Origin: Stercorarius parasiticus
Lineage: Eukaryota; Chordata; Aves; Charadriiformes; Stercorariidae
Direction: 5' to 3'
Length of the DNA: 64,000 bases
Assembly (NCBI GenBank): GCA_013396915.1
Contig: VWZL01005060.1
Location: 183,822-247,821 of the forward strand
Shown piece after piece: positions 29,927-61,700 of the stretch; positions within the stretch are counted from its first letter, which is position 1; each line of letters starts with the position of its first letter. The notes below the pieces were generated by a model. The model worked only from the letters and a program-made list of their open reading frames with translations, was not told where the DNA came from and did not search any database. A program made the position numbers and the translations under genes.

Positions 29927-30203
29927 GGTCAGTTGGGCACCCGCCGACCCCAGGGAGCCCGTGGCACCCACGGCACGGTGCGCCTGTGCCACTCACAGCC
30001 CTCTGCTCCTTTTGCAGGCACAGCCGCCTCCTGCCAGTCCATCCACAGGGAAGCTGCTGCCTGATGTGAGTCCTGCACACCCAGGCCCTGGCCCCGCACC
30101 GTCCCCCCTGGCCCGGCCATGCTCCTGGCTCGAAGCCTTCAGCCTCAGCTTCCTCTCCGGGGTCCCCTGCTCGGGGTGCGCCACAGCCCCCCACACTCTC
30201 ACC

Positions 30204-30209
30204 AATAAA
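30204..30209 (+). terminator. WFDC2: Polyadenylation signal of WFDC2
   Basis: AATAAA in the non-coding last exon that starts after the TTTTGCAG acceptor at 30017. A GT-rich stretch (GATGTGTTCGTGG) follows. Confidence 0.8.
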
Positions 30210-30235
30210 GCAGCCTCTCCCTGATGTGTTCGTGG

Positions 30236-31440: not shown

Positions 31441-31442
31441 GG

Positions 31443-31449
31443 TTTAAAT
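31443..31449 (+). promoter_or_regulatory. TATA-like box of the five-WAP gene
   Basis: TTTAAAT 45-51 nt before the ATG at 31494, at the same distance as in the neighbouring WFDC genes. Confidence 0.5.
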
Positions 31450-31493
31450 CCCTGCTGGCAGGCCCAGCAGCAGAGCCCTCTGACAGCAGCACA

Positions 31494-33954: not shown

Positions 33955-34276
33955 CCCTGGCCGGGAAGGGCTACGCTGGGAGCTGTCGTTTCGGGGCTGC
34001 CCCCCACCCTGCTGCCGTTGCACTCCTGTGAGTGAGCAAGACCCCCCGCACCCATCCCTGCTCCAGATCCTGTGCACCACTGGCGAGAGGGCACCAGCAT
34101 CGCTGTGATGGGTCCTGGATGAGGTCATCGGCACCCCCAGCTCCTTCCAGCCATGCTGCTGAGGGCTGCGCACTGCCTGCACCACCCCACGCCAGGCCAA
34201 CGCTCCCAGCAGCCCGGGCATGGAGGAAAATCCCTGCATCCCCATCAGCTCCGGCCACTTCACAGCACTGAAATAG

Positions 34277-34282
34277 AATAAA
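34277..34282 (+). terminator. Polyadenylation signal of the five-WAP gene
   Basis: AATAAA about 320 nt after the stop codon, within the terminal exon. Confidence 0.75.
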
Positions 34283-34289
34283 CCGGCAC

Positions 34290-35145
34290 GTGGCTGCCTT
34301 CTGCTCTGGCTCGCCACCCCTCTGCTCTGCTGCGGGTTCCCAGGAGGCGCAGGCAGCCCTGGGCTGTGCACAGGCAGGGAGGTGCAGGCAGGCGTCCAGC
34401 AGCCCTTCCTGCAGGCAGGTGCTGCCCTGGGGCAGGGAGAGGTTCCCTGTTTCCATGCGGGTGCCCTCCAGCCACCATCTCCCCGTGGTGATTGTCCCAA
34501 TGTCCCCTTGGCAGTCATGGATGGGAGTGCAGAAACCAGTTCCCTCAGATTCCTTGCACCGAGGAAGGGCTCATTTGCATCCCAAAGTGTGAAAACCTGG
34601 TTGGAAAAGCAGTCATGGGAAGGGGGCAGGGAGCAGCACCCACGTGCCAGGAGCCACGGCAGGACCCACTTGCTCCCTGGTCCCAGCCCAGCCCCATCAC
34701 CGTGCTGGGACACCTCTCCCACCTCGTGATGCCGGGCAGCACCGTGGTGGCAGAGCCAGCAGAGCCCCGCCAGCTGCTCCCACTGCCGAGCCAGGGACAA
34801 GCCATGGGATCTGTCCATGGCTCCCACCCCAAGGAGGAGAGGGACAAGCCGGGCTGGATGGAAACCCAGGCAGGGGGTCACAGCCAGCTGTGGCAGAGAC
34901 AGGGCTGTGTGCCATGGGAGACAGCACCCGCCTGACCTCAGCTGCCCTCCCCGGCCCCGCGGGTCATCCTGACCCGAAAGCGTGGCTCGGCTGGAGATAA
35001 GCGGGATGGCTGGCGGGGCGCCGGCAGGTTCTGGGAACTGCCCCTCCTCCTGATCCTCCTGCCCCTCCTGCCTGCGGCACAGCCAGTCTGCCACGGCCGG
35101 CAGCCTGGCCACAGCTGCCCCCTCACCCTGGGCACCCCCGGCAGA
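34290..35145. other. Intergenic stretch between two WFDC genes
   Basis: About 850 bp from the poly(A) signal of the five-WAP gene to the promoter of the 13-WAP gene. I see no exon here. Confidence 0.5.
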
Positions 35146-35148
35146 GAC

Positions 35149-35154
35149 TTTAAA
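35149..35154 (+). promoter_or_regulatory. TATA-like box of the 13-WAP gene
   Basis: TTTAAA 49-54 nt before the ATG at 35203. Confidence 0.5.
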
Positions 35155-35202
35155 CCCGGCCCTGGCTCAGCTCCGGACACGCGCGACATCCCCAGCAGCA
35201 CC

Positions 35203-38200
35203 ATGAGGCCAGGGGTTTTCCTCCTCCTGGGGTTCCTCGTCCTCAGGGCAGAGCCGGGCACTGCACCGGAGGAGAAAGGTGGTGAGTACCGGCAGGCAAA
35301 CCCGGCAGGCGCCCAGCACAGGCATCCTGGGGCCAGCTCCTTCCACTCCGCCACCCCCCCGTGCCCCTGCCATGTCCCCTCTGTCCCTGCCCAGCACATG
35401 CTGCCATTGCTTGGCCCATGCTGGTGGGGACGGTGTCCCAGCCGGCTGCAGTGCCTGTGCCACAGCCCCGCTGCCTCGGGGAGCCCGCTCCCACCCCAGG
35501 CTGCACGGGCACATGTGTGTGCCCCTCGTGCACACCCCCACGCACACCCCCTGCATCCTGCGTGCCCAGCAGCCATCAGCACCCGGGGGTGCTGCACGTG
35601 GCAGGAGCCCTCCCGGCCTCCCCGGGCACCCCCGCACCAACACGGGCAGACGCAGCTCTGGGCCATCTGTGCCCACAGAGCCCAGCGCCTGGCCCAGCGC
35701 CGAGGAGGGGTCTCTGGGCAGAGCGGGGGCTGCACGGCGAAGGCAGGAGTGAGGAGGGTGCTGTCAGCGGCTGGCAGGAGCTGTGCAGGGGTGCAGGGGT
35801 GCACAGACCCCCCCGCACTCGCGCCCTTGCAGTGTCTGGGCTCTGCTCCTCACACCTCCCATCCCTTCCCCACTCCTGCATGTGGCTTCCTACCACGGAG
35901 ATGGACCCAAACCCAGGCGGAGGGGCCTGGCCCCCCACTGCCAGGGCCCCCCCACCGTGGGTGCGATGCCGGGGCCGGTTATGCCCAGCCACAGCTGCTC
36001 TGCCCCAAGACACCAGCCGGGTTCCTTCTTTGTTTTAACCAAACAGCTGCTGTTTGGAGTGAAACCTCCCGGCAGCGTCTCTGTTTGCAGCCCAAACAGC
36101 GGGGCCCCACCAGGAGCCGGCAAGGGGTATTTGCAGAAACTGCTGCTGCTCCCTCGGCGTCTCCCACCTGGGTGGGCAGGAGCCAGGCACAGGTGCCAGC
36201 TCCAGCTGGAGCTCGCCTGTGTCAAAGGCAGCGCTGTCCCGATTTTCCCAGCCAAGATGAGCATAGGGTGCCAGCAGGAGGAGGAGGAGGAAGAAGAGGA
36301 GGGGGCAGTGGCGAGGAGCGCTCTGCTTGCAGTGAGGATGCTCAGGGCAGCAGGATGCTCAGGGGTGGATCCTGGCCTCCAGCTGGTGCTGCCTCGGTGC
36401 TGGCTTCTCCCTGGCAGGGCCAGTGGCACTCCTTGTGGCACTTGCTGCCTTGTGAGGGCACACACAGCCCTGTGCTGTGCCATGCTGTGCTGTGCAGGTC
36501 TCGGGGTGGGGTACGGCAGCCCCGGGGCCGTGCCACAGGGGAGGCTCCAGCCCCACTCCAACCAGTCCCTCTCCTGCCCAGGCGTTGCCATCAGCCGGGC
36601 ACTGCCATGCCAGCAAGGGAGGGTCAGCATGAGCTGAGTTCCTGCCAGGACCCTGCCGCCCAAGGCTACGCTCCCCTCTCCGGTCCCCTGTCCCCATCAG
36701 CTGGGACCCATGCTCCACTCCCTGGCGGATGGAGCTTTGCCGCCTGCTGCTGCCCTGACGCAGCCATCCCGCCACAGGGGATCCGGAGAAGCCGGGGAGG
36801 TGCCCGCGGGACTTCACGCGCTGCCTGCGCCTGGAGCCCCCCTTCTGCGCCAACGACTCCAGCTGCCCTGGCAGGCACAAGTGCTGCCCCCGGGAGTGCC
36901 GGCTCCGCTGCACCCCCCCAGCAGAAGGTACGGCACCGCGGCACAGCCCCTGGCACCACCTCTGTCCCAGGACAGTCCCCATCCTTGTGCCATCCCCATT
37001 GCCACGGAGCAGCTCTCTGTATGCTGCTGGCAGCCTCCCGCCCGCAGCTCCCAAGGCTGGAATGGGGCACACGGAGGGGTACAGAGAGGGGCAGGCAGCG
37101 GGGTCCAGCCTGGGGGGGTTTCCCGGCACTCTCCTGGGGTGCCACTGGTGCAGCCTCACCTCTCGGCCCCACACCGCTCGGTGTTGCAGAGAAACCTGGC
37201 GCCTGCCCGGCGGCAGCCCCCGAGGGGCTCTTTTACCCCTGCTCCTTCCCCTGCCTGGAGGACAAGGACTGCCTGGGAGCGCAGAAGTGCTGCCCGCTGG
37301 GCTGTGGCCCTGCCTGCCTGGAGCCAGTGCAGGATAAGGCCTCCATGGGGCCAGCGGGAGAGTCAGGATCACCGCAAAGCTCCTCCGTGCCATGGACATC
37401 TGCCACCACCCCACCGCCACGGGCCACCGCGGTGTCCACACACCACTTCCCCTACACCGGTAAACCCCAGCACCAACACATGGGCCATGGCAAGTGGCCG
37501 GGGAGCCCCAGGGCAGTCAGGGCAGCCCATTGGGGATGCTGAAGCCTCACACCTGCTCTGCTCCGCCAGATCAGCCCAAACCCGGGGAGTGCCCCACGGC
37601 GCAGCCGGGGCCATGCCAGGAGCGATGCCGAGGTGACAGCGACTGCCCCGACGCGCAGAAGTGCTGCAACAGCAGCTGTGGCCACCAGTGCGTGCCGGCA
37701 GCTCCGGCCGGTGAGACGGGATGGGACGGGCAGTGTGGGCAGGGCTGTGACTCGGGGACCAGGGGTGATGCCATGGGGCCATGGCCACCCTGAGGCACAG
37801 AGCTGTGGCACAATGGAGACCCCCTCGCTCTGGGCTCGCTGGGGTGGGCTCTGTCAGGGTTGGCAGGAGAGACACTGCCTGTCCCTGATCTCCCACTGCT
37901 GTTCCCTGTGCATCACCTGGACACCTGCATAGGGGGACACAGTGCTTGGGGCCGCGGTGCCACCGGCGTATTACCCACAACAGGCAGAGAGGGACCGGTG
38001 TGGGGACCCAACGCGTGGCTCCCGGGTGGGCACTGGGATGGGGAGGGGGCAGCAAGACCACCCTCCAGGGAGGCCACCGTCCCACTCTCACCTCCCCCTG
38101 CTGACACTGCCGGCTGGGCCCTGCTCCGCGGCACAGAGGACACCAGCCCTGTCCCAGCCACCCCGCAGCCGCACCACCAGCAGAGATGCCGTCAGGACCA

Positions 38201-41200
38201 GGACTGTCCCCCGTCCGAGGTGTGCTGTCACCAGCGGTGCAGCCAGGAGTGCCACGCACACAGCCGAGGTGAGTGGGGCAGGAGCACCCCAGCCGCCGTG
38301 GAGTCCCTGCTGCCGAGCTGCCACCCCCACAGAGCGGGGCTGGGTGGGAGCCCAGGATTGACAGAGGGGACAGATGTGACCTGGTCCTTGCTGGCATCCC
38401 TGGCACCACGTGCAGCTGCAAGCCATCTGCCTCGCAGGGACCCCCACAGCCACGCCAGCCTGGCAGGAGGGGACGAGGTGCTGGAGCAACAGGGACTGCG
38501 GCGCTGGGGAGACGTGCTGCGGCGGCCGATGCGCGGGCTTGTGCAGTGCTGAGCACCAAGGTGGGAAATGGAGAGCGGCTGAGTCCAGAGAGCCATGGGG
38601 CCAAGCACGGCTCCTCTCTGCAGCCCCCATGCCCCTCGGCTGAGGGGTCTGGTGCCAGCCCCACGGTCCCCCCTGGAGGAGATGCCGCAGCACTGCCAGG
38701 GCCAGAGCCGTGCTGTGGTGCCCGGCGTCCCCGGGCCTGTGGTGCCAAGGGGGCTGCGTGACCCATGGGGGCGGCTGGACTGTGGTGTGGGTCTGCATAG
38801 CCATCCCGGGAGCACCACAGCCACCCAGCGCCGTGTCCTGCAGGGAAGGCCGGCTTCTGTCCGACCCGCGCCGGGCTGTTCCCCAGCTATGATTGCAGAG
38901 CCTGGTGCCAGCACGATGCCGAGTGCCCCAGGGAGGAGAAGTGCTGCCTGCGCGGCTGTGACTATATCTGCCTGCCTCCGTCCCGAGGTGCGAGCCACTC
39001 AGCCCCACAGCGGGCAGGGCAGGGAAGGAGCAGGCAGGGGTGTCCCCCTCAGCTCTGGGAGCTGTGGGTCTGGGCAAGGGAGACCCGCTGTTGTCCCCCA
39101 CATCCCCAGCCCCACTGCCTCCTGCCCCCCAGAGAAACCAGGCATCTGTCCCTTGGCCGAGGGAGCACTGACCACCACGGCCCCATGTGGCACCGCCTGC
39201 ACTGGGGACTGGCAGTGCCCGGGGGCTGAGAAGTGCTGCAGGAGCAGATGTGGCTATGCGTGCTCGGCCCCCGAACAAGGTGAGGGGACAGTCACTGGGA
39301 TGGAGGTGCCACACACTGCCGGGCACACTGGCAAACCTCCCACGGGGCTGGATGTGGGGCAGTGCTGCCACAGGGCAGGCACTCAGACCCCTTGGGGTGC
39401 AGCCGTCAGGGTGCCCCGAGGCTCCAGTAAGGCGAGTGCCTGCAGCGATGGGGGGGTGCTTGCCCCTGCCCCTGCTGCCCCTTCCCGCCCCCCTCAGACA
39501 AACCCGGCAAGTGCCCGAAGGTGAGGCCGCGGCAGCCGCCGGAGCCGTGTGCGGAGGAGGATTCCTGCACCCACGACAGGGACTGTCCCCGGCAGGAGAA
39601 GTGCTGCTTCTCCGGCTGTGCCATGCACTGCACCCGCTCTGCCCGAGGTGAGCGCAAGGAGCCCGGCCACCGGCACGGGGCAGTGGTGCCCGAGCGGGGC
39701 TGGGACCCTGCGTCCTCTGCCGGGTGCCCCCTCCCACAGAGCACCCCGGGGAGTGCCCCCGGGCAGAGCCGTGCTGGGACCCGCGGCGCAGGCGCGGGAG
39801 CCAGTGCCTGGATGACAGCGTCTGCCAGCGCGAGGAGAAGTGCTGCGACACCGGCTGTGGCTGGGAGTGCATGGCCGTGCCTAGAGGTAGTGGGAGCAGG
39901 CTCTCAGGGGGAGCCAGCCACCAGCCCCCCAGGGCAGCCGGGTGACAGCAGGTCACTGTGCCCTTGCAGAGAGTTGGGACAGGGCTGGCAGCCGGTGCAC
40001 AGAAGAGTGTGAGGCCGACTTGCAGTGTCCCCGGGGGCAGAGGTGCACGAGCACCGGCTGCGGACGTGTCTGCATGGACATCCCTGGAGGTGAGAGCCAG
40101 CCAGGCCCCCCCAGGAGCTGTGCAGGGCCACCCTGGGGTGCCCCACGGAGGGGTGCTCCCAGCCGGTCCCGCCCAGCCGAGTGCTTGTCTTGCAGGCAGA
40201 GTGGGAGTGTGCCCGATCCCCAGGGAGGGGGGGACGTGCCTGGACCTGTGCAGTTTCGACGAGGAGTGTCCCTGGGGCCACAAGTGCTGCAGCAATGGCT
40301 GCGGCCACGTCTGCATGCCGGCCTCACTGCAAGGTCAGCCCCTTGCACCAGCATGCGGGTCCCCCTGCCCGGCTGAGCCCCGCAGGGACAGAGCCCAGTG
40401 TCCCCCTGGCACCAACCCCACACAGACATCCTGGCCTTCCCTCCCTAATGAGGACCCCCACCGTCACCACGCTGGAGACCCATACCAGGGGCTGCCAAGG
40501 TGGCTGTGCCCATGGGGTCCTGCCCTTTCTGGCTCCAGGGATGTGATCTGCCCCATCCTTCTTTCCATGACTCCCCCTCTTTCCATGCAAGTGATGAGCA
40601 TGCACGGCCTCAGCTGTCCTCTTTTGCCCGCAGAGCGTGACACCACGGTTGTGCCACGGCATGGTGCCAAGCAGTGCAGGGAGGAGTGCGAGGCCGACTC
40701 GCAGTGTCTCTGGGGACAGAGATGTACCCTCACTGGCTGCAGCCGCATCTGCATGGACATCCCCGGAGGTGAGATGCAGCTCAGCCAGCCAGGACCCAGG
40801 CATTGCCCCGGGAGCCGTGGGGTGCCCCTAGTCGGGTGCCCCATGGCGGTGTGCTCTGCCTTGCAGGCAGAGAGGGAGCATGCCCCATCCCCAGCGGCCA
40901 CGGGACGTGCCTGGACCTGTGCAGCCTCGACGAGGAGTGTCCCTGGGGCCACAAGTGCTGCAGCAACGGCTGCGGCCACGTCTGCATGCGGGTGCCTGGT
41001 GGTAAGGGGGCCCAGGGCCACTGAGCTTGGGCTGGCACTGGGGCTGGCATTGGGACATGTGGGGTGCCAGCCAGACCTGCGTGAAGGGCACAGCCCTCAG
41101 CGTGCTCCTGGCTCAGCATCGCTGCAGGGCCAGCTCCTGCTGCTGCCCCATCGCTCTGCTCTGGGCAGAGATACACCTTCGGGGCGAGGGGTCCTGAAGG

Positions 41201-43389: not shown

Positions 43390-45685
43390 TGTGCCGGCGG
43401 GGCGGAGGGAGCAGGGCTGGCGCCGGAGCCCGGATAATTCCTGCCATGTCGGTAATGAGCCGCACCCAGGCAGGTCCCGGCCTCCCTGGCAGCATCCCGG
43501 CCACAGCCCTCGAGCCGGGGGGACCGGTAGGACAGGACGGCTGCCCCGGCGCAGCCCTCCCAGAGGCCGGTCGGACGGCAGTGGCATGCCCGGTCTGGGC
43601 TGGGGGCACTGCCAGTGCCCACCCACAGCACCTTGGGGACAAACCGGTGATGGGGACGGGCAAGGGGACATCGTCACTGGCCTCTCCGCTGACAGTGAGC
43701 ACGGCAGTGCCATGTCAGGGCATGGAAAGCCACCACCTCTGGCGCAGTCGTCAGCCAGAGTCTGGGGCACCACACACTGTGGCACTGCCCTCCCTGCGGT
43801 GCAGGTCCTCATGGAAAGGCTGCACAAGAACCACGCGGGGGACATGTCCCTTCTTCCCTTTCTCCCACGCTCCCTCCCGGTTAATGGAGAGGACCCCAGG
43901 CGGGATGGTCCCACACACGGGGCTGAGCCTGTGGGTACTGCCTCGCCTGCTGTGGAACGGAGGTCCGGCAGGATGGTGATGCTCCCATCCGTTCCCATCC
44001 TGCAGGCACCATCGGCCCTTTGCCACCCACTTCATCGCCCTCTCCCGGCTTGGGGCCATCCCCTTCACCTGCTCCCCTCCCGGGGGACTGCCTGCGCAGA
44101 GCCGTGCCCTGTCCCCCCTGGCAGCCCCTGGCTCCCCGCAGCACATTGGGGTCTGGCGGCTGCGTTGCCGGCGAGAGTGACATCCCCCGGGGATGGGACA
44201 TGGCTCAGAGCCTGCCCCGCTCGTGGCTGGGGATCAGACCCACAGCAGCCCAGGGCTCCCGGTGCTGGGCTGAGCAGCAGGTGGGTTCCCAGCATCCCAC
44301 CAGCAGCCGTGGGCGTGTGTGGGGTTAAACCTGCCAAAAGGAGGGAGAAACAGATTAAGCTGTTCCCATTCAGCAGGAATAATTGTCTTCCTAATTAATG
44401 CCGTAATTACTGTCCCAAGGGGGAAGTGGAGGCCGAGGAAAGCTCCGTGGGGAGAGGCCAGGAAAGTTGGTGGGGTTTGGAGGGAGGTGCCGTGACCCGC
44501 CCACGCCCCACCGAAGCTTCTCCCTGCCTCTCCTCCAAAGCCCCAGGATGGAGACCACGTCAGTGTCCCTGGCACGGGACACGGTGACATGGCAAAGCCT
44601 GAGCGGGGCAGGAGCAAAGCCAAAGGGACATGCCAGTGGCAATCAGGGGTCACAGGGTCAGGGTGGGTGGTGGGAAGGTGACCCCTCCATGGGGACTGCG
44701 GTGGTCCCGGAGCCGCGGCTCGGTGGCCGCCCTCAGTGCATCTCCCACAACCTTGAGCTGTCCGGGACATTCCCAGTGGCACAGAGAGTCCCAGCCCCAC
44801 AGGAGGGATGAGCCACAGCACCAAAGTCTACCAGGGCTACATTTTTCCCCACTATCTCTCTGCAGTGTCTCAGCCGCCTGGGTGATCACTTTAATGAGTG
44901 ACATCGTCTTCCAGAGCAGTCCCTGCCGTCCCTGCATGGGGGTATTGCCGTGGGCAAGCTGGGGGGACGCTGCAGTGGACGCAGGAGCCTGTCCTGGGGG
45001 TGCTGGGGTTCGGGGCATTGCGGGGGGCGAGGGGGGGCTGCTTCCAGGCAGATGGCACGTTGCACACAGCAGAAATCATGCCACATGGGGGACCTGTGTT
45101 GGTGACCCCTGCCCTGCCCTACCACTATGGAGGAAATAGCGACCGGGGCAGCCCAGCCCAGGGAGCAGCCAGGAATGTGGCACCTCCCAGGGCGGGCACT
45201 CAGCGGGGACAGGGACAGGGACAGCACTGTGCCACCAGGATGGTGCTCCTGCCCAGACCAGGGCGCATAGCAGGAGAGGCATTGGGGGAGCCAAGGGGCG
45301 GAGCAGGTGCCCCCGGCCAGGGCATGTCCTGGCTGTCCCCACAAAGAGCCTGCTGAGACCTGGTGCTCCCCGGGGCTGACACAAGCCAAGTATTGTCCCT
45401 GCTGGCCACCCAGGGACAGGCACAGGGACAGGGACAGGGACATCTCCCATGGGGAGCAGGGACACCCTGGTACAGTGGAGCCAGCTCCACTGCTCCTTGT
45501 CTTGCAGCTCCGTGTGCTCCTGGGATGGGTCATCCCACCTCCGTCCCCCACATGGGGACACACCGATGGGAGAGGGTCCCCATGCAGCCGGCTGCTGGCA
45601 CGCATGGGGACGCGCGGTTTAGGTGGCACACGCAGCGTGGACTGTACACACGCCCACACATGCACATACACACAGAGCATGGACT

Positions 45686-45716
<31 letters not shown>

Positions 45717-46965
45717 TCCACACCTGGCCAGCTCCCCTCGCACGTGCACACACACACGCAGGCGCAGGCAGCCTGCCCGGCTGAGCGTGCCGGAGCCCTC
45801 CTGCCTCTTGCAGGGACAGGTGCTCCCGGAAGGGAACCGTCAGGGAAAACCCCAGCAGCTCCGGTGCCTCCATCCTTGCAACACACTGCACCAGCAGACC
45901 CACCTGCAGCCCCATGTGGCGCCGGGACAGGCAGCAGCTCCCGGGACAGCCCCTGCCGCTGGTGCAGCCTGTGGCACTCCTGCAGATACCCCGAGCAGTG
46001 CGGTGTTAGGGGTGGCTTCAGGACCCTTGGGAAAACCAGAGCCCAAGCGATTGCCATGGGGTTCTGGGCACGCAGAGAAACGTGGGTGGGAAGTGCAGCC
46101 AGACCCCGGGAAGAGCCATGTCCCTCCAAGTGATGGTGCTGGTACAGATCCATGCCCCTGCCTGGAGCCCCCAGCAGTGGGCAGCCACAGCGGCCAACGT
46201 GGCCAGTCCTGCCAGCCCCACGGAAGGGAGCGGGAGGCGAGAGGCAGCTCCGGCACTGTGTCACGGGGACACGAGCACCCACCCCGGCTCTGGCGAGGAC
46301 ACAGGACCCGATGCTACAGCTCCACAGCCCTGGCGCTGAAGCAGAGCCCCTTTTCCCCATGCGGCCTCCAGCTCCCTGTCCCCAGCACCAGGACCCTGTG
46401 CCCCCCGGCCGGCCCTGGTCCCCAGCTGCCACCCCAAGGTGTGGGGATGGGTGGGCACCCGCTGGCCAGGAGGTGCGGTGCTGAGGGGCCGGTGGCAGCG
46501 CAGGGCTGTGGACCGTGTCCGGTCACAGTATGTCCCTTTGGAGCCAGTGATTGTTCCTGGAGGCAGAACAATGCCCGGAGAGCTGCCAGGGCACCATGGG
46601 CCGCTCCACAGCACCCAGCTGGGGAGCCACCTCTGCTGCTTCGTCAGGGCCAGCCTCACGCTGGGGTCCCCCGTCCCCTCGCTGCCACCTGGCCCGTACC
46701 TGTCTCCCGTAGCAGGGAGCTGTGCTGGCTGCTCTCGGCTTGTGACATGGCACGGCACGGCATGGCACGGCATGGCACAGCACAGCACAGCTCTCTCAGG
46801 GCTTCAGGGAGGCCAATGCCAAGCAGCAGCACCTTTGTGCCTCCCTGCGCAGCTTGTTCAGCAGCAGCAGCCCACAGGAGGGAGGGGACAGAGGGGTTCA
46901 TGCTCGGATGGAACGTGCCGGGCACTGGGGCACGGATGGGGTCACCGGGACCAACCTCCAGCACT
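43390..46965. other. Intergenic stretch between divergent WFDC-type loci
   Basis: About 3.6 kb without recognisable exons. It includes an AT-rich island at about 44.34-44.42 kb with TAATTAATG and TAATTA cores, GGGACAGGGACA-type short repeats at 45.2-45.45 kb, and a CA repeat. Open frames lack a cysteine framework. Confidence 0.45.
45686..45713. repeat. CA dinucleotide microsatellite
   Basis: About 14 uninterrupted CA units, flanked by shorter impure CA runs from about 45.65 to 45.76 kb. Confidence 0.85.
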
Positions 46966-46972
46966 GGGAGGA

Positions 46973-46978
46973 TTTAAA
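46973..46978 (+). promoter_or_regulatory. TATA-like box of the short WFDC-type locus
   Basis: TTTAAA 49-54 nt before the ATG at 47027. Confidence 0.45.
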
Positions 46979-47026
46979 CCCCTGCCTGAGCCCAGGCGGG
47001 CAGCCCCCACGCTGCCCATCCCCGCC

Positions 47027-47471
47027 ATGCGGTTGCTGTCGCTGCTCCTGCTCCTGGGGCTCTGCTGCCTCTGGGCCCGGCTGATGTCCACAGGTGAGCC
47101 CAGGGTGGGCACGGGGACACGGTGGGATGGGGCTGCGGGAGGATGCACAGCCCAGGGTGGGCACGGGGACATGGTGGGACGGAACTGCAGGAGGATGCAC
47201 AGCCGCATGTAAAGGGATGAGCGTGGCCATGGCTGGGGTTCAGCCTCCCGCACAGCAGTGCTGTCTCACACAGCACGCTGCAGAAGTGACTGAGAAACCC
47301 CCCAGTGGCTCCCCCAGGATGGGAGACCAGGGTGTTGGGCCCCTTTCACCACCAGAGCCCTGCTGTGGGGCTAATAGCCGCGCCCCAGCATGCTCAGAGG
47401 CGAGGGCTTGGGACATGGATGCTCCTGTCTCCCCCCAGGATTCACCTAGCCCTTGCCTGGACCAGGACTGA
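47027..47471 (+). CDS. Small WFDC-type locus: signal exon plus degenerate second exon
   Basis: Exon 47027-47093 encodes a signal peptide (LLSLLLLLGLCCLWARL) and ends in phase 1 at a consensus donor. No intact WAP exon follows. A possible exon from 47284 (after CTGCAG) continues in frame as EVTEKPPSGSPRMG..., with a PCC pair and three further cysteines, to a TGA at 47469-47471, giving 84 residues. Its beginning resembles the EKPGxCP start of a WAP module. A strong acceptor at 47438 (CTCCCCCCAG) would also give a short terminal exon, G-F-T-stop, like the terminal exons of the other WFDC genes. I read this as a WFDC gene that has lost its WAP domain, or a small secreted peptide derived from one. 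An AGTAAA variant poly(A) signal lies at 47647. Confidence 0.4.
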
Positions 47472-47659
47472 GGAACCCACATGTGCAGCCACCCCACACC
47501 ACCCTGTGCCAGACAGATGGACAGCCAAACAGATGGCCATGGAGGCCATCAGCTACAGGATGAGCACCCGTCTCCCCATCCCACCTCCACCACCTCGCCC
47601 TCCGCTCAGCGCTGAGCACAGCGTCTCTGTGTCTCCCCGACTTCCCAGTAAACCCAGTC

Positions 47660-48575
47660 TGTGATGAGCACTGGCTGGCTCTTGCTGTGTCAGTCTCCTG
47701 CCGAGCCCCCACTGGTCTCCATGGGACCACCTCAGCCCCCGTGGGAGGGTTGGGGTCCCGGGCAGGGGCTGTGCCACCACAGCCAGCAGGTCCCGGGGGA
47801 CCTGTACACGAGTCCTGCCCAAACTCCATGGGTTCGGCCATTCCTGCCGGAACTGGGCTTGTTCCTATTCCTGGAGACCCTCCTGGGAGCAGGGACCTGG
47901 TGGGACCCCGTCGTGTCCCTGGGCTTGTCCCTGGGCCACGGTGACACAGCCAGCCCCGACCTTGCCTTGGTGCAGTTCCGCAGCCGGAGCATGTTGGGGC
48001 TGCCCTGAGCCCTCGGGGGTCAGCTGGGGGTGCCCCTCTCATCTGGAACGGGCAGCGGTCCCCCAGCTCCTGTCCCCACTGCCAGCATGGTGCAGCACAG
48101 CACAGCGGGCACAGATGAGGCTCCAAGGGGCATACAAGCTCCCAGCACCCCGTCAAACCCCCCATGCAAAACCACCAGATCTGTGACCCATGGGTGTCCA
48201 TGCCCGTGTGGCTCCTGGCCGAGCCCTGCCATGGTGTCTGCTTTCGCAGGATGCCAGAGGGCCTTGGGCATGGAGCAGCTCGCCGCAGGGAGCCCCAGGG
48301 AGCCAAGGGCAGGACAGACCCCACGGGGAGGTTTCTCCTGGCTCAAGGACACTGTACTGGTCCTGGGCATGCGCCTGGTCGGGGCTGTTCCTGTGGCTCT
48401 CCCATGGGGGACAGAGTCACGTCGCTGTGCAAAGGGCCCTGCCGAGCCCATGCCGGGCAGGAGCGGGAACAGGATCTCCCCGTGCCCAGAGCAGGGCTGG
48501 GCAGCCACGATGGCCTGGCAGCACCAGGCACTTTGACCAGGGACAGCTTGTCATGCTAAGCTGGTGGCCCAATGT
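47660..48575. other. Intergenic stretch
   Basis: Between the 3' end of the small plus-strand locus and the poly(A) signal of the minus-strand Asp-rich gene. No exon recognised. Confidence 0.45.
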
Positions 48576-48579
48576 GGAG

Positions 48580-48585
48580 TTTATT
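48580..48585 (-). terminator. Polyadenylation signal of the Asp-rich gene
   Basis: TTTATT on the plus strand reads AATAAA on the minus strand, about 155 nt beyond the stop codon at 48742-48740. Confidence 0.7.
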
Positions 48586-48739
48586 AGGAAAGAGAAGGTC
48601 CTGCCCAAAACACCATTGGTGCCTGGGACCGGCCCCGGCAGAGTGAGGCAGAGGAGGAGGCCGAGGGCAACCGCCCCTGTCCCCACCTGCTGCGGGCTTT
48701 TCTTGTCCCACACGCTCCTCACACACCCTGTGGCATTGG

Positions 48740-51700
48740 TCACCAAGCATCATCGCCGTCACCACCGCCATCGTCATAACTGTCATCATCATCGTCACCA
48801 TCATCATCATCATCATCTCCATAGTCATCGTCATCATAGTCGTCATTGTCATCACTGTCATCATCGTTGTCTCCATTGTCATCACCGTTGTCACCATTGT
48901 CATCACCGTTGTCGTCGCCATCATCATCATCATCATCATCGTCGCCATCATCGTCGTCACCATCATCGTCGCCGTCATCGTCGCCGTCATCGTCACCATT
49001 GCCATGCTCATTTTTGTCATCGTCGTCATCATCATCGTCGTCATCATCGTCGTCGTCATCATCGTCACTGTCATCTTCCTCCCCACTGTCACCCTTGTCA
49101 GACTCAGGCTTCTCTCCTGCCTCAGGCTTCCCCTCACTCTCCGGCTTCCCCCCTGACTCCGGCTTTTCCCCCAGCACAGGTTTCTCCCCAGCCTCTGGCT
49201 TCTCCGCAGGTGCTGGCTTCCCCCCAGCTACTGGTTTCCCACCGGTCTCCGGCTGCCCCGCAGTCTCCGGCTTCGCCCCAGTCTCCGGCTTCCTCCCAGC
49301 GTCTGGCTTCCCTCCTGGCTTTGCTGTGATCTCCGGCTTTGCTATGACCTCTGGCTTTTCCCCAGTCTCAGTCTTCCCTCCACATGCTGGCTTTTTCCCT
49401 GAACTAGGTTTCTTCCCAGTGTCCAACTTCCCAGCCAGCGTGGGCTCGTTCCCTGCCACAGGCTCTCCCCCGGTCATTGGCTTCTTCCCCAGCGCAGGTG
49501 TCGCAGCAGCCACCGGCACAGCCCCGGGCGGGCACCGGTTGTTACCCACCCGCTCCACACCTGGTTCCCTCTTCCCGTCCAGGGTGATCCTGCCGGGCTG
49601 TGGACCGGCCACCGCATTGGGCTCTTCACCAGGCAAAGGGCACTTCCCTGGCAGAGCTCTTCCAGGTTGCCCTGGCTGTGGCCACCTGGCAGGGACTGCT
49701 CCAGGGAGCCCTGGAAGGGAGCAGAAAGCAGCAGTGTCAGCCCCAGGGCACCAGCCCTGCGCTGCCCTCCCACCCACATCTCCCACCCACATCTCCCACC
49801 CACATCTCCCACCCACCAGCACCCTGCGTCACCATGCAGGGCTCTGGGACAGGCAAAGCCCACAGGGATCTGTTCCTTGATGGCTCAGGGTCTCAGACTG
49901 TGATGCTGAGCTACTGCATCGAGGGCAGGATGCTCCCCACCCTCGCAGCAGCCGGGTTTGCGCTGCCTGCTCCTCTGCAGCTTTTCACGGTGGGTTTTCA
50001 GTGCTCTACCTGACTTCTGCTGCCCACCCAGCCACAGTGACACAGCCCCCTGGGGACGCACCAGTGCCTCCCGGCACATGGCAGTATCATGGTGGGGCCA
50101 GTGCCCGAGGGGAGCCGGGGAGAGATGGCACCACGCCGCAGCCTGCCCCGACACCCACAGCAAGCCTCACATCGCCCAGACTCATCCCAACCCTGCTCCC
50201 CCCGTGGTTTCCCCGACCCTCGCAGGCAGAGACGCCGGCAGCTGCCAGAACCCCCAAAGCACTGTCTTTCCCCCCAGCAGCACCCCGACTCCTGCCTGCC
50301 AGCAGACAGCCGCCGGGCTCATTGCGGGCACAGGGCTGGGAGAGCTGGGCCAGAACTTGGAAAAGAAAAGCAAGAAAAATGTGTGTGTGTGAGATTGCAG
50401 CAACTTCTTGGCAAAACAACTACAAATACAGCATGTGCTATTTAACCAGGGCATAAATATATTACTAAGCGCACGTAGGAAGTCAGTCTGCATGCTCCCC
50501 AGGTGAGCAGCAGCAAACCATCCCGCTCAGCAGCAGCACGGCGCGGCACAAGGCTCCCCACGGGCAGTGCTGGCCCCTGGACATTGCTCTGAGACAGGGA
50601 AGGGGACAAACACCTCAGCAATGGAGGCACCAGCACCACCGGCTCACTGGCAAAAGGCGGGTTGCATCGTAAGGCTTAAAACCAGCCTGTAAACTGAGAT
50701 GAAAAGAAACTCGAGTTTCTCCAACACATTTTCATCAGCTTGCGACGGCCCCAGCATCTTGTCACAGAGCAATGGCAAACCTGGCTCCCACAGCACAGGG
50801 GCCGTTGCTGCCTCGGAGATTGAGCTTTAGGATAAAACAGCCCAGCTGGCAACACGTGGAGGAGCATTTGGATATAAGGTGTTCCATAAAATCTCAAACA
50901 CTGCTCTCAGAACCACTGTACTGCTCATTCAAAAGAAATGCAATTTTCACTTCTTGGAAAGTCGGTCATTTCAAAAAAAAAAAAAAGAGAGACAAAGAAA
51001 AAAAATTATTGTTTTGAGAATTTCCTTTCTCCCAGAGCTGCACCTCCCCAGCAGGGCTGGTGCTTTTGGAAGGCTGACATGGGGGGGAGATGCCTTGAAT
51101 TTGCCACGAAGCAAAGCGCAGGGGCAGCCGCCAGCGCGGGCGAGGACCGTGCCGCACTCTGTCTGAGGCAGGCACGGCCGGTAGGCAGCAGAGCTCAGCC
51201 CGCTGGAGCTCAGCTCCAACAACCTGCAGGCTCTCATTTCGGTTAGAGATGCCCTGAGCAGGGCTGTGGGGGGCGAGGGTCCCCACTGGCCCCAGGGGGG
51301 TCCCAGCCCCACAAATGGAAGCCATCCTGGCCCCCCCGGCAGCCCAGTCTGGGTCCGGTCCAGCCCATCTCAGTCCCATCTGCAGCACCCCCGGGCTCTG
51401 GCCGGGCTGATGTTTCCACCGTTCCCTGCCCTGGTCACTGGTTCGACTGACAAACCTCCTCCCGAGCATCCCTGTGCCTGCACGCTGGTACCACCGCTGT
51501 CTCCATCCTCAGCAGGAGTTTTGCAGAACTCCAAGATTATAAAATTTAATTAAGGGCTAAACCTCACAAGGGTTACAGCTCTTCACAGGAAGCTTTCATA
51601 AATACAAAGGTGAAAACAGGCATTTAAACACACATCACTGAACATCACCATCAATACTGATCTAGTTGAAGATGTCCCTGCTCATTGCCGGGTGATTGGA

Positions 51701-51887
51701 CTACATAACTTTAAAGTTCCATTGCACCCCAAACTATTCTATAATTCTATGAAAATACGGAAAATATTCTTAAAATCTAGAGAGGCTGGGTGTTTCCAGC
51801 ACACCCGTACTTGCCTGCGGTGGGTGCTGCCTGCAGCTCTGCCCACAGGGCGAGGAGCCCCAGCAGGAAGATGCCTCTCGCCGTCAT
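48740..51887 (-). CDS. Secreted hexapeptide-repeat and poly-Asp protein with a WFDC-type signal exon (trappin/REST-like)
   Basis: Two coding exons on the minus strand: 51887-51815 and 49710-48740, giving 347 residues. Exon 1 is a WFDC-family signal peptide (GLLALWAEL, as in WFDC2) with TTTAAAT 39-45 nt upstream. It ends in phase 1 at CAG|GCAAGT, a GC donor in perfect consensus. Exon 2 starts in phase 1 after TTTCTGCTCCCTTCCAG. Residues 26-98 are Pro/Gly-rich with two of the protein's three cysteines. Residues 99-228 are about 22 hexapeptides such as GKKPMT, GGEPVA, GEKPVL, GGKPES. Residues 229-347 are nearly all Asp with Gly, Asn and a few Ser/Tyr. There is no WAP domain. The hexapeptides recall the cementoin repeats (consensus GQDPVK) of mammalian trappins, transglutaminase substrates encoded in the mammalian WFDC locus; the layout of signal exon plus one large exon is that of REST genes. 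Calcium or mineral binding is my inference. The main doubt is the long intron and GC donor. Confidence 0.65.
48743..49099 (-). repeat. GAY triplet repeat encoding the poly-Asp tail
   Basis: On the minus strand the sequence is a long mixture of GAT and GAC codons, interrupted by GGT/AAT/AGT, encoding residues 229-347. Both Asp codons are used throughout, so it is not a pure microsatellite slippage tract. The opposite strand gives spurious Ser- and His-rich frames. Confidence 0.9.
49100..49489 (-). repeat. 18-bp coding minisatellite (hexapeptide repeats)
   Basis: About 22 tandem six-residue units, one shortened to four residues. Position 4 is almost always Pro, position 3 usually Lys and position 1 usually Gly. 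Examples in order are GKKPMT, GGEPVA, GNEPTL, GKKPSS, GEKPEV, GRKPET, GAKPET, GGKPVA, GEKPVL, GEKPES, GGKPES. Confidence 0.85.
49711..51814 (-). other. GC-AG intron of the Asp-rich gene
   Basis: About 2.1 kb from GC at 51814-51813 to AG at 49712-49711. It contains the CR1 fragment at 51667-51752 and a poly(A)-like run near 50.97 kb, and no other recognisable exon. Confidence 0.5.
51667..51752 (+). mobile_element. CR1 LINE 3' end fragment
   Basis: Matches the familiar 3' end of avian CR1: GAAGATGTCCCTGCTCATTG, a diverged GGACTA...TTAAAG...CCAAACTATTCTA run, and the terminal octamer-type repeat ATTCTATA/ATTCTATG. It is truncated to under 100 bp and diverged, so an old insertion. Confidence 0.85.
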
Positions 51888-51925
51888 GCTGCCGGAGCCA
51901 GTGGCCGCAGCTGAGCCGGGTGGCA

Positions 51926-51932
51926 ATTTAAA
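51926..51932 (-). promoter_or_regulatory. TATA-like box of the Asp-rich gene
   Basis: Minus-strand TTTAAAT 39-45 nt upstream of the ATG at 51887. It supports 51887 as a genuine first coding exon. Confidence 0.5.
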
Positions 51933-58715: not shown

Positions 58716-61700
58716 ATGGGTGCCGCCCGGGATGCGGAGCAGCAGCCGGGGCCGCCAGGCGAGGAGGGTCTGGGCGGCGCCGAGGAGCAGCTGGTCAGCA
58801 CGGTGAGGCGGGGGGTGGCCGGGGCCGGGCGGTGGAGGGGAGGGGGCAGCGGGCAGCGGGCGGGCCGTGGCTGACGGCTGTGTCCCGCAGAGCCCCTGGA
58901 ACATCATGATCAAGCACCGGCAGGTGCAGCGGCGCGGCCGGCGCTCACAGATGACCACCAGGTACGGGGTGGACCGGGCCGGAGGGACCGGGCCGGTCGG
59001 GAGCTGGACTGGGGGGGCGGTGGGGGGAGTCCGGGCCAGCTGGATCCGAGGGGGAAGGTTGAACAGCGGGACTGGACTGGCTGGACCAAACTGGGCACCA
59101 GACCGGAGAGGAGGATCTGGGTCAGACCAGTCTGGGAGACACCCACACACACACCTGAATCCTCCATCTTTAGCTTCACGGACCCGGTCGTGTCCATGGA
59201 CCTGCTGCGAGCTGTCCTGCAGCCCAGCATCAATGAGGAAATCCGGGCTGTCTTCAACAAGTACATGAAGGTGAGAACTGCCCCATCCCATCATGGGCTG
59301 CATAGAGAGAGCTCTGCTCCCAGCTGCTGTGCGAGGCTGTCGCGCCCGGCTCCTGGGTGCAGTGTGGGAGCTGGGCCTCCATGCCTGCCCTGACGCTACT
59401 TGGCTGCTCAGGCTGTAGCGCTCTCTTCCAGTTTTTCCAGAAGGCAGCAATCAACGTACGTGATAATGTCGGGGAGGAGGTGGACCCAGAGCAGCTCATC
59501 CAGGAGACGTGTCGGAGCTGCTTGGAGCAGGTGGGTGCTAAGTGAGGGGCTCCACTCCCTCAGCAGAGCCTGGCACCTGGACGAGCAGAGCAGCCCAGCT
59601 AGGACACATCCCTCTTAATGGCTTTGCCATTAGTCGGGAGGGATGACACATCCACAGCCCTTCTATGGTTGCTGGGCTTGGCTTCATTCTCACTGGGAAG
59701 AGGAGAGCAGTCAGGTCCGGGGGCAGCTCATGCTGCTGCTTTCTGCTGCTGTCGTTAGCACGTGTCGCACAGAGCTTCCACAGAGACCAGCCTCCTGGCA
59801 TCTGTCAGAGAATCCTGGGGGCAGCAGGTTTTTTTTCTTTCACATCTTGCTTTTGTCCCAGTTGACCAGATTGTGCTTTTGCATCTTGCCATCTCTGAAA
59901 GCACTGCATGGTGGCACTCCAAAAGCAGACATGTTACAGGGCTTTGGGGCAGATACACAAAAGTGGGGGTTGCTGGCAGGTCCCTCTTGGGCCCAGAATC
60001 GGGTAACCCTTCTTTGTCTTCCTGCAGGCCAAACTGTTGTTCTCTGATGGCAAAAAGGTTGTTCCCAGGTTGCCCCATGAGCAGGTAGTACCAAAGGTAA
60101 AAGTTTTTATTGTTCCCAGAGGCATGAATGGCTTGTAAGAGCTGGGAGAAAGGTTGGAATTGCTTTGTTCTCTGCCTGTTCTTGTCCATCAGTGCTCCAG
60201 GGGGAAGGCAGAGCTGGGGGATGTTAGGCTAGGAGGGAGCGGTACCTAGAGGGCAACGAAAATCCCAGGTGCAGTCACCGCTTGTTGGAGTTCGATGCAT
60301 CTCACAGGGACAGGGTGGGGTTGGCATTTCCCTGTGCGCTTGGGCTCTCTGCCTCAAGTGTGGCAAAGGAGAGAGTGGCCAGCGGGATGCGTGGGGCTCT
60401 GCCCGCCTGGTGGGGAGAAGGGCTCTGCTCATCCCACTGCCATTCCTCTTCCAGCGTGCCAGACAGATGGATGAGGATCTGAATCGTAGAGGGAGCCCCA
60501 TTCCCAAAAAGGTAGGAAGGCTTTCCACACAAGGGATTTTATTTTTTGGGAAGCCTCGTCCTCCTTCCTGGCCATTCTCACAGTATGAGCACATGCAACT
60601 GCACAGGCAGCTTTTGGGGTGCCTCAGAGGGGCTCGTTCTCATGCCAGCCTACATTTCTGCTCATGACAAAAAGAGCAGCTTCCCTGGGAGGGGGTGGGT
60701 AGCCAAGAGGGTTCTCTCTGCCTGCACAGCTGAGTCACTGAAGGATTTCTTCCATGCAGAGAAAGGGGCGGCCTCCAGTACAGAGCCTGTCAAATGATCG
60801 TGGGGTCTCAGGCATGGCTGCGTGAGTATGGGTCCCATGTTTCAGGAGGGCAGGGGGGGAAATGAGGCTGCCTGAATCGGGAAGTACAGAAACCCTGCGG
60901 TCTCCTTCCCATCCTGCAGAAAGTAAAGGTGCAGGGAGAGTGCCAGAGGGCGGGTGGGAGGGATTTAGGTTGAGCTGTTCTTCCCAGGAGGCAAAGACCT
61001 TCAAGGAAAGGGTTTTAAATAGGCCTAAAGGGGTGAAAAGGTCCAGATGGACTATTCAGAGTGAGGAGTGGGTGGTGATGGGATCTTGGCAGCCAGGGAG
61101 AGAAGAACTTGCAGCAAAGATGAGGGTCCGGAGCAGGGNCAGATCTGGAAGGGCTGGGGCTCAGTCCCTGCTGCTGGTGCCACAGTGGTGACTGCGCTGG
61201 TCCCGTAGGAACTCGTTCTTACTGCATTTTCCTTCCCCTCAGGTGGAAGCTCAAGGTCTCTGAGCCAGTGAGAAGGGATGGACCAAAGGTATTGGCTGGC
61301 CAACACGACTGGGCTCACCCTCTCCTCCCCTTTGCTTCCGCCAGCAGAGCCCCGCTGCTGCGGGAACGGAGGACAGCACTGAGCTGTGCTGTGCCCCAAC
61401 GGGCCCCTGCAGTGTAGGAGAGAAGCAAGAAGAGGAGCGAAGTGCCTCGAGGCCTTTGCTTGTCTCCCCCAGGCACTGTAGCCTGTAGCTCTGCAGAGTG
61501 GTGCCACTGTTAAGAGACCTGGGGAGAGCAGTAGTAGCCAGGAGGATCCCACAAGTGTTTCCCGCAAGGGAACCTGCTTAGATCAGCCCAGAGGGAATAT
61601 AACTTCCCTCCTCTGCGGAAGTCCGGAGGTCTGTGGCCAGCTCCCTCCCTCCCAGGCTGGGGGCGGTTCTGAGGTTCCCCATCAGAGAGCTGAGGCTCAT

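What the first reader, a model, noticed from the sequence alone, without database searches (positions are those of the whole stretch)
48740..51887. A WAP-less member of the WFDC cluster encoding a secreted hexapeptide-repeat plus poly-Asp protein
The minus-strand gene joins a signal exon of the WFDC family (GLLALWAEL, almost as in WFDC2, with the same TATA-like box spacing) to a single large exon encoding about 22 G-x-K-P hexapeptides and a tail of about 119 residues that is nearly all Asp. Phase matches exactly and the total is divisible by three. In mammals the same locus produced trappins and semenogelins by fast remodelling of WFDC genes (REST genes). This would be an independent avian product: a lysine-rich repeat that could be cross-linked by transglutaminase, joined to an acidic tail that could bind calcium. 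In a bird, eggshell, eggshell membrane or oviduct is an obvious place to look, but that is inference.
Basis: partly seen in the sequence, partly recalled or inferred. Interest (0 to 1): 0.92.

Follow-up and report, generated by a model that had tools for sequence, protein, structure and literature searches.

The report
Bird WFDC-locus gene lacking WAP domain
In what looks like a bird genome, inside a cluster of protease-inhibitor genes, lies a probable undescribed gene whose inhibitor part is replaced by a lysine-proline repeat and a long acidic tail; relatives in two birds suggest a fast-evolving secreted protein, with its tissue and function still to be shown.

Summary
On the minus strand a TTTAAA box (51932), a signal-peptide exon (51887-51815), a phase-1 GC-AG intron and one large exon (49710-48740) encode 347 residues, followed by AATAAA at 48585. 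The repeat block has 13 exact GxKP and 17 KP, not about 22; the 119-residue tail is 65% Asp, not nearly all.

Relatives favour a real gene; the transcript test could not be run. A predicted Willisornis vidua protein matches both exons (E 1.6e-32), with KP repeats and an acidic tail. A 115-residue flycatcher prediction, named NO66-like, joins the same signal exon to the same exon-2 start and an acidic tail, but has no repeat block. Five ORFs of unnamed source carry the promoter, signal exon and donor region.

Signal exon and promoter resemble those of WFDC-type genes in the window; no WAP domain was found. This resembles mammalian REST and SPINT3/4 genes (WFDC frame, new central exon), but it lies beside DNTTIP1, apparently not at the REST locus.

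Best reading: a fast-evolving, presumably disordered, polyanionic secreted protein. Ca2+ binding, transglutaminase linkage and eggshell or male-tract use are untested. New variant of a known kind.

The parts
51927..51932 (-). TTTAAA TATA-like box, 45 nt before the ATG
   Evidence: six signal exons in the window that I read as WFDC-type have such a box at 51-54 nt; 36-38 of the 40 codons' worth of sequence upstream of the ATG read the same in P0002, P0006 and P0007
51815..51887 (-). coding exon 1: signal peptide [24 protein letters not shown](G), ends in phase 1
   Evidence: blastn to signal exons at 28145, 24351 and 35198 (E 3e-7, 1e-5, 4e-5); first 25 residues 25/25, 24/25 and 23/25 identical in P0002, P0006 and P0007
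49711..51814 (-). GC-AG intron, 2104 bp (CAG|GCAAGT ... CCCTTCCAG|GG)
   Evidence: the Willisornis and Ficedula protein predictions join the same two exons at this point
49490..49710 (-). exon 2, non-repeat N-terminal part (to aa 98)
   Evidence: 35 of 74 aligned residues identical to Willisornis
49100..49489 (-). exon 2, GxKPxx hexapeptide block, aa 99-228, pI 8.6
   Evidence: 13 GxKP, 17 KP; codon position 3 most variable among 12 in-register units
48743..49099 (-). exon 2, Asp-rich tail, aa 229-347, 77 of 119 Asp, net charge -78
   Evidence: acidic tails also in P0001 and P0003
48740..48742 (-). stop codon TGA
48580..48585 (-). AATAAA polyadenylation signal, the only AATAAA/ATTAAA in 45000-48760 on this strand

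Best explanation
It is a functional two-exon protein gene of the avian WFDC cluster. It kept a WFDC-type promoter, signal exon and phase-1 splice frame, but its central exon encodes no WAP inhibitor; it encodes a fast-changing, presumably disordered protein with a short Pro/Gly-rich N-terminal part, a Lys-Pro hexapeptide block and a strongly acidic tail. Shown: gene anatomy, similarity of promoter and signal exon to others in the cluster, protein-level similarity to predictions in two named birds, no WAP domain detected. Inferred: the signal peptide sends it into an epithelial secretion; the tail works by charge, binding Ca2+, mineral or cationic proteins, with Asp here partly replaced by Ser/Asn/Glu (possible phosphoserine) in the two passerines; the Lys-rich block may anchor it, perhaps as a transglutaminase amine donor. 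I put about 0.9 on a real secreted-protein gene, about 0.4 on a charge-based Ca2+/mineral/cationic-partner role, and 0.2 on eggshell in particular.
For: One spliced frame carries signal exon, N-part, repeats and tail. Willisornis vidua P0001 matches it (E 1.6e-32 for residues 1-228; 3e-23 for residues 1-140) and Ficedula P0003 (E 4e-12) joins the same signal exon to the same exon-2 start. Tails are acidic in 3 of 3 (window, P0001, P0003: Asp+Glu 67%, 41%, 32%), with 1, 7 and 3 S-x-E motifs. Promoter and signal exon recur in 5 of 5 unnamed ORFs. The TATA-like box sits nearly as in six other signal exons; all 5 such boxes on the + strand of 20-50 kb precede signal exons. AATAAA follows the stop codon. 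Codon position 3 varies most in the repeats (mean heterozygosity 0.17/0.27/0.40) and in the tail (19, 25 and 55 of 119 codons off GAT). Mature protein pI 4.05, charge about -73; no Pfam family.
Against: No transcript or peptide was seen here. Both named homologues are computer predictions: P0001 runs on into the neighbouring WAP-Kunitz gene, and P0003 lacks the whole repeat block; P0001 is 60 residues shorter than the window protein up to the tail (173 vs 233). The intron needs a rare GC donor. The stretch upstream of the ATG is about as well conserved (36-38 of 40) as the signal exon (23-25 of 25), so conservation of exon 1 alone does not prove coding. The third-position signal does not tell the strands apart, because one antisense frame shares third positions and is open over 48840-49880. 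No sequence here tests Ca2+ binding, cross-linking or tissue. Term searches in the main texts of three eggshell papers found nothing matching.
Confidence: 0.6

Rival explanations
1. The ORF is a chance reading of a decaying GAT/GAC microsatellite and a GC-rich minisatellite next to an orphan signal exon; there is no protein.
For: Repeats with few stops keep several frames open: antisense frames of exon 2 hold only 2, 3 and 4 stops and one other sense frame only 3. Some slippage is visible (seven identical codons in a row).
Against: Protein-level matches in Willisornis and Ficedula cross the intron in the same frame; the non-repeat N-part is conserved (35 of 74); promoter, splice sites and AATAAA are in place; third codon positions vary most.
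Confidence: 0.06
2. The exon belongs to a larger gene that continues into the WAP-Kunitz exons at 43.0-42.3 kb, as in the Willisornis model, so it is not WAP-less.
For: P0001 joins the acidic tail to a Kunitz domain (E 4.5e-17) and a WAP match just under Pfam's cut-off (20.1 vs 20.8 bits) that align to window 43018-42338 (-).
Against: The window's WAP-Kunitz gene has its own CTTAAA box (43388) and signal exon (43335-43224) that splices in frame to its WAP and Kunitz exons. The tail has its own stop codon and AATAAA. The joining stretch in P0001 reads like a shifted frame of the GAT-type repeat (MMMMVIMVMV; inference). P0003 ends without WAP or Kunitz.
Confidence: 0.06
3. The product is a male-tract secretory protein (epididymis, cloacal gland or semen), a bird counterpart in role to semenogelins or SPINT3/4.
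For: Several mammalian genes of the telomeric WFDC sublocus are epididymal and REST products include semen coagulum proteins (PMC3209443, abstract and passages; PMC7556508, passages). The central exon changes fast, as in REST genes.
Against: No expression data here; the same paper notes that several WFDC genes are expressed in many tissues; Gln, relatively abundant in REST products, is rare here (5 of 347); no Asp-rich semen coagulum protein is known to me (recall).
Confidence: 0.3
4. The product is an eggshell, eggshell-membrane or oviduct matrix protein that binds Ca2+ or calcite through its tail.
For: Asp-rich low-complexity tails occur in known mineral-matrix proteins (recalled: dentin phosphoprotein, mollusc Asprich/aspein); the Willisornis tail has 7 S-x-E motifs, which I recall as Fam20C-type sites.
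Against: Term searches in the main texts of three eggshell papers gave no such protein (supplementary tables could not be read). This is weak: among 17 theoretical tryptic peptides the repeat and tail give pieces of 66 and 90 residues that standard proteomics would miss.
Confidence: 0.2
5. The gene is a dying copy in this bird: the GC donor and expanded Asp run mark relaxed constraint.
For: GC donor; large differences in repeat and tail length between birds.
Against: Donor CAG|GCAAGT otherwise fits the consensus (recalled); frame intact over 347 codons; first 25 residues identical to P0002.
Confidence: 0.07
6. The coding strand is the + strand: the signal exon at 47027 splices to an antisense ORF that reads a Ser-rich stretch and then GFPPxSGF repeats.
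For: One + frame is open over 48840-49880 (347 codons with the stop) and covers most of the tail and the whole repeat; phase-1 joins to + frames are possible on a crude acceptor scan. Third codon positions coincide in that frame, so codon variation does not tell the strands apart.
Against: Both named homologues run from the minus-strand signal exon in the minus frame; no AATAAA/ATTAAA lies on the + strand in 49700-51900, while the minus strand has one 155 nt after its stop.
Confidence: 0.03

Closest known systems
REST genes (semenogelins, rodent Svs2-6, rabbit SVP200)
   Same: Signal exon of PI3/WFDC descent, one large fast-changing main exon, WAP lost in primate and murine members (PMC7556508, passages).
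   Different: Lies beside DNTTIP1, apparently not between MATN4 and KCNS1; polyadenylation signal close behind the stop codon in exon 2 with no separate 3' exon seen; Asp-rich tail; poor in Gln; bird.
Trappins (PI3/elafin) with transglutaminase-substrate hexapeptides
   Same: Six-residue repeat with Gly and Pro three apart, Lys-containing, following the signal exon (repeat KGQDPV from PMC2831891, passages).
   Different: Repeat is GxKPxx, almost without Gln, and starts some 75 residues into exon 2; no WAP domain; PMC2831891 reports no typical trappin in chicken or zebra finch, and the trappin-related bird gene there has a WAP but no repeat.
SPINT3/SPINT4/SPINT5
   Same: Proposed to keep the WFDC regulatory and signal frame while the WAP part is lost; human telomeric sublocus (PMC3209443).
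   Different: Their central part is a Kunitz domain, here a low-complexity repeat plus acidic tail.
SIBLING-type and other acidic mineral proteins (osteopontin, DMP1, dentin phosphoprotein; features recalled)
   Same: Secreted, presumably disordered, Asp-rich; the two passerine homologues have Ser/Asp/Asn-rich tails with S-x-E motifs.
   Different: Different gene family and locus; no RGD motif; no evidence of mineral contact.
Ficedula 'NO66-like' 115-aa RefSeq prediction (P0003)
   Same: Homologue: same signal exon, same exon-2 start, acidic tail.
   Different: Model lacks the hexapeptide block; I read the name as chance acidic similarity, not tested against NO66.

Membership tests
WFDC (WAP) protein family | WAP four-disulfide-core domain with 8 Cys | tested here: not met
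   No Pfam family at E 0.01; hhalign of the two-sequence N-part/repeat profile against 12 of the window's 21 WAP matches Prob 0.1; only 3 Cys in 347 aa
WFDC gene cluster, by descent | WFDC-type signal exon, phase-1 junction and TATA-like box | tested here: met
   blastn E 3e-7 to 4e-5 to three signal exons; box spacing 45 nt vs 51-54 in six others; phase 1 as in the WAP-Kunitz gene and the 47027 signal exon, the only two others whose phase I checked
WFDC gene cluster, by descent | lies inside or beside the cluster | tested here: met
   21 WAP-pattern matches between 20.8 and 42.9 kb, 17 on + and 4 on -, a WAP-Kunitz gene at 43.3-42.3 kb, a DNTTIP1 dimerisation domain match in 58878-59390
REST (semenogelin) genes | locus between MATN4 and KCNS1 | tested here: inconclusive
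   One neighbour is DNTTIP1, which speaks against it; MATN4 and KCNS1 were not searched for and the window's left end was not identified; locus definition from PMC7556508
REST (semenogelin) genes | three exons, third wholly untranslated with the polyadenylation signal | tested here: inconclusive
   AATAAA lies 155 nt after the stop; no transcript to exclude a third exon
REST (semenogelin) genes | seminal vesicle expression, transglutaminase substrate | not testable with these tools
   no expression or biochemical data
Trappin | KGQDPV-type transglutaminase-substrate repeat | tested here: not met
   Repeat is GxKPxx; 5 Gln in all
Trappin | C-terminal WAP domain | tested here: not met
   as in row 1; the sequence ends in the acidic tail
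SIBLING-like acidic mineral protein (features recalled) | acidic low-complexity region | tested here: met
   77 of 119 Asp; acidic in 3 of 3 proteins compared
SIBLING-like acidic mineral protein (features recalled) | RGD motif and multiple S-x-E sites | tested here: not met
   no RGD on reading the translation; 1 S-x-E in the window protein, 7 in the Willisornis tail, 3 in the Ficedula tail
SIBLING-like acidic mineral protein (features recalled) | presence in a mineralised tissue | not testable with these tools
   no proteome data could be searched by sequence

The most novel reading that the evidence does not exclude
Birds independently did beside DNTTIP1 what mammals did at the REST locus: a WFDC gene kept its promoter and signal exon, lost the inhibitor, and turned its main exon into a cross-linkable Lys-Pro repeat fused to a polyanionic, Asp- or Ser/Asn/Asp-rich tail that works in a calcified or coagulated reproductive secretion (eggshell, its membranes, or seminal/cloacal fluid), with constitutive Asp and phosphorylatable Ser trading places between lineages.
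Probability: 0.3. Interest if true: 0.85.

Novelty: new variant of a known kind. Interest (0 to 1): 0.6.

Why it matters
It would show that remaking the central exon inside a conserved WFDC promoter and signal frame is not only a mammalian habit, and it would give birds an undescribed class of secreted acidic protein. In the two annotated birds found, the gene is named after a demethylase or fused to its neighbour, and its repeat and tail would largely escape trypsin-based proteomics, so eggshell and semen studies could have missed it. It can be tested directly.

Tried and rejected
Degenerate-WAP idea: the two Cys in the exon-2 N-part (C47, C84) looked like a WAP remnant, but Willisornis does not share them; only C134, in the repeats, is shared, and profile comparison gave nothing. 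Fusion with the WAP-Kunitz gene: rejected because that gene has its own promoter and signal exon. Antisense gene from the 47027 signal exon: I first thought that repeat and tail lay in different + frames; one search showed this to be wrong (one + frame is open over 48840-49880), so that rival now rests on homologues and poly(A) signals and its odds went from 0.02 to 0.03. ORF length as evidence: 0 of 20000 Markov simulations stayed open, but I give this little weight because the model destroys repeat structure and other frames are nearly open too.

Literature: eight text searches. I saw titles and abstract starts of the listed papers only: 19 of 19, 9 of 9, 20 of 62, 30 of 6657, 15 of 237, 12 of 55316, 10 of 176 and 12 of 2058. 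None of those listed describes this gene in its title or abstract start; one search returned mostly unrelated bacterial papers, and the term NO66 (or histidyl-hydroxylase NO66) occurred in none of the 30 and 12 listed papers. The window's left end was not identified: 5 ORFs from 5.5-13.1 kb had no Pfam match, nor had two further ORFs near DNTTIP1.
Full report
What is there. The minus strand of window 51932-48580 reads as a compact gene: TTTAAA box at 51932, ATG at 51887, coding exon 1 to 51815, a 2104-bp intron with donor CAG|GCAAGT and acceptor CCCTTCCAG|GG, coding exon 2 from 49710 to 48740, and AATAAA at 48585. The spliced frame has 1044 nt including the stop, 347 residues. The product begins with a signal peptide (by eye; no predictor was run), followed by a Pro/Gly-rich part to residue 98, a Lys-Pro repeat block (99-228) and an acidic tail (229-347). 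The repeat has 13 exact G-x-K-P and 17 KP, 12 of 16 KP spacings being six. The tail has 77 Asp of 119, coded by 41 GAT and 36 GAC. The mature protein has pI 4.05 and a charge of about -73; the part before the tail has pI about 9 and the tail pI about 4.

Is it a gene? ORF length says little here: three antisense frames of exon 2 have only 2, 3 and 4 stops, and one other sense frame only 3. Four kinds of evidence do say something. First, homologues. Searching residues 1-228 gave one protein, Willisornis vidua P0001 (E 1.6e-32); residues 1-140 gave P0001 again (3e-23) and P0002, an unnamed ORF. A profile of the window protein and P0001 gave six hits at E up to 0.1: Ficedula P0003 (4e-12) and unnamed P0002 and P0004-P0007; P0001 itself, at 515 residues, is outside that search's length range. 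In the non-repeat part of exon 2, 35 of 74 aligned residues are identical between window and Willisornis; the first 33 aligned residues give 14 of 33 with Ficedula. Second, P0002 and P0004-P0007 are unspliced ORFs that run through promoter, signal exon and donor region. In the three closest (P0002, P0006, P0007) the first 25 residues are 25, 24 and 23 of 25 identical, but the 40 codons' worth of sequence upstream is 37, 36 and 38 of 40 identical, so this supports the element as a whole more than coding as such. Third, third codon positions vary most, both across 12 in-register repeat units (0.17, 0.27, 0.40) and in the tail (19, 25 and 55 of 119 codons off GAT). The caveats are that repeat copies are not independent and that one antisense frame shares these third positions and is itself open over 48840-49880. 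Fourth, promoter, splice sites and polyadenylation signal are all in place; the AATAAA is the only AATAAA/ATTAAA on this strand in 45000-48760, and none lies on the + strand in 49700-51900.

Against it: no transcript or peptide was available; both named homologues are computer predictions; P0001 runs on into the neighbouring WAP-Kunitz gene; P0003 has no repeat block; the donor is of the rare GC type.

One gene or two. The Willisornis model ends in a Kunitz domain and a WAP match just under Pfam's cut-off that align to window 43018-42338 on the same strand. In the window that neighbour has its own CTTAAA box, signal exon (43335-43224) and in-frame WAP and Kunitz exons. The given gene has its own stop codon and AATAAA. 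The join in P0001 passes through a run of Met/Val that looks like the acidic repeat read in another frame. I therefore take the Willisornis model as an annotation fusion.

Kinship. Besides itself, the three best blastn matches of the promoter and exon-1 region inside the window are signal exons at 28145, 24351 and 35198 (E 3e-7, 1e-5, 4e-5). Six signal exons that I read as WFDC-type (one of them shown to splice to a WAP exon) have a TATA-like box 51-54 nt before the ATG; here the distance is 45 (the box variants were chosen after seeing the sequences). All five such boxes on the + strand of 20-50 kb precede signal exons. The region at 50-53 kb is richer in TTTAAA (five on the minus strand), so the box alone could be chance at a few per cent. 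In the coding exon I found no WAP: no Pfam match, three Cys in the protein, and no profile match to 12 of the window's 21 WAP-pattern hits. An ORF at 58878-59390 (+) holds part of the DNTTIP1 dimerisation domain (E 1.6e-8, above Pfam's cut-off).

Comparison with known kinds, made after the above. Mammalian REST genes keep the signal exon and 3' exon related to PI3 and remake the main exon; in Glires their locus is between Matn4 and Kcns1 (PMC7556508, passages). Trappins have KGQDPV repeats plus WAP; typical trappins were not found in chicken or zebra finch, where the related gene has a WAP and no repeat (PMC2831891, passages and one section). SPINT3, 4 and 5 of the human telomeric sublocus are Kunitz genes thought to have arisen in a WFDC frame, SPINT3 and SPINT4 highly specific to the epididymis (PMC3209443, outline with abstract, and passages). 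The given gene shares the way of arising with all of these but meets the definition of none. The WFDC2 and EPPIN labels and the human gene order around DNTTIP1 are recalled, apart from what PMC3209443 states; MATN4 and KCNS1 were not looked for in the window.

How it may work. Secretion follows from the signal peptide (inference from sequence). The tail is acidic in 3 of 3 proteins compared (Asp+Glu 67, 41 and 32%), but Asp gives way to Ser, Asn, Thr and Glu in the two passerines, with 7 and 3 S-x-E motifs against 1 here. A conserved charge with a changing sequence points to a bulk electrostatic role: Ca2+, mineral or cationic proteins. The Lys-Pro block could be an amine donor for transglutaminase, but with 5 Gln in the protein it is unlike the trappin repeat, whose Lys or Gln residues are cross-linked (PMC2831891). 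The tissue is unknown. Eggshell is possible; three eggshell papers searched by term in the main text showed nothing matching (PMC8144736 and PMC4666066, passages; PMC9363672, no passage found). That is weak, because only 8 of 17 theoretical tryptic peptides fall in the 7-30 residue range, covering 137 of 327 residues, and the repeat and tail contain pieces of 66 and 90 residues. Male tract is at least as likely, since several genes of the mammalian telomeric sublocus are epididymal.

Verdict. A probable real bird gene, undescribed as far as the eight text searches listed under Tried and rejected can tell; a new variant of the known kind with a WFDC frame and a new central exon; function open but testable.

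Noticed in passing
window 46973-47093 (+): Another WFDC-type promoter and signal exon (TTTAAA at 46973, MRLLSLLLLLGLCCLWARLMST, GT donor, phase 1) with no WAP-pattern match downstream on the + strand; possibly a second WAP-less gene or a relic, reading towards the given gene.
   Followed up: partly
window 48840-49880 (+): A single antisense frame, open for 347 codons with the stop, reads a Ser-rich stretch and then GFPPxSGF repeats across the given exon; its third codon positions coincide with those of the minus frame.
   Followed up: partly
window 43388-42335 (-): A three-exon WAP-Kunitz (EPPIN-like, recalled label) gene with CTTAAA box; its Kunitz exon differs from that of Willisornis at 2 of 58 residues while its neighbour evolves fast.
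   Followed up: partly
window 20922-20524 (-): A second WAP plus Kunitz pair on the minus strand at the other side of the cluster.
   Followed up: no
window 28578-40938 (+): A dense run of WAP motifs on the + strand (17 of the 21 found by pattern), including two nearly identical copies at 40267 and 40938, suggesting recent tandem duplication.
   Followed up: no
P0001 (Willisornis vidua WISP_90844) and P0003 (Ficedula 'NO66-like'): Probable database annotation errors: one seems to fuse two neighbouring genes, the other is named after a demethylase, probably because of its acidic tail.
   Followed up: partly
window 49767-49816: A perfect 13-bp tandem repeat (3.8 copies) about 57 bp upstream of the acceptor of exon 2.
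   Followed up: no
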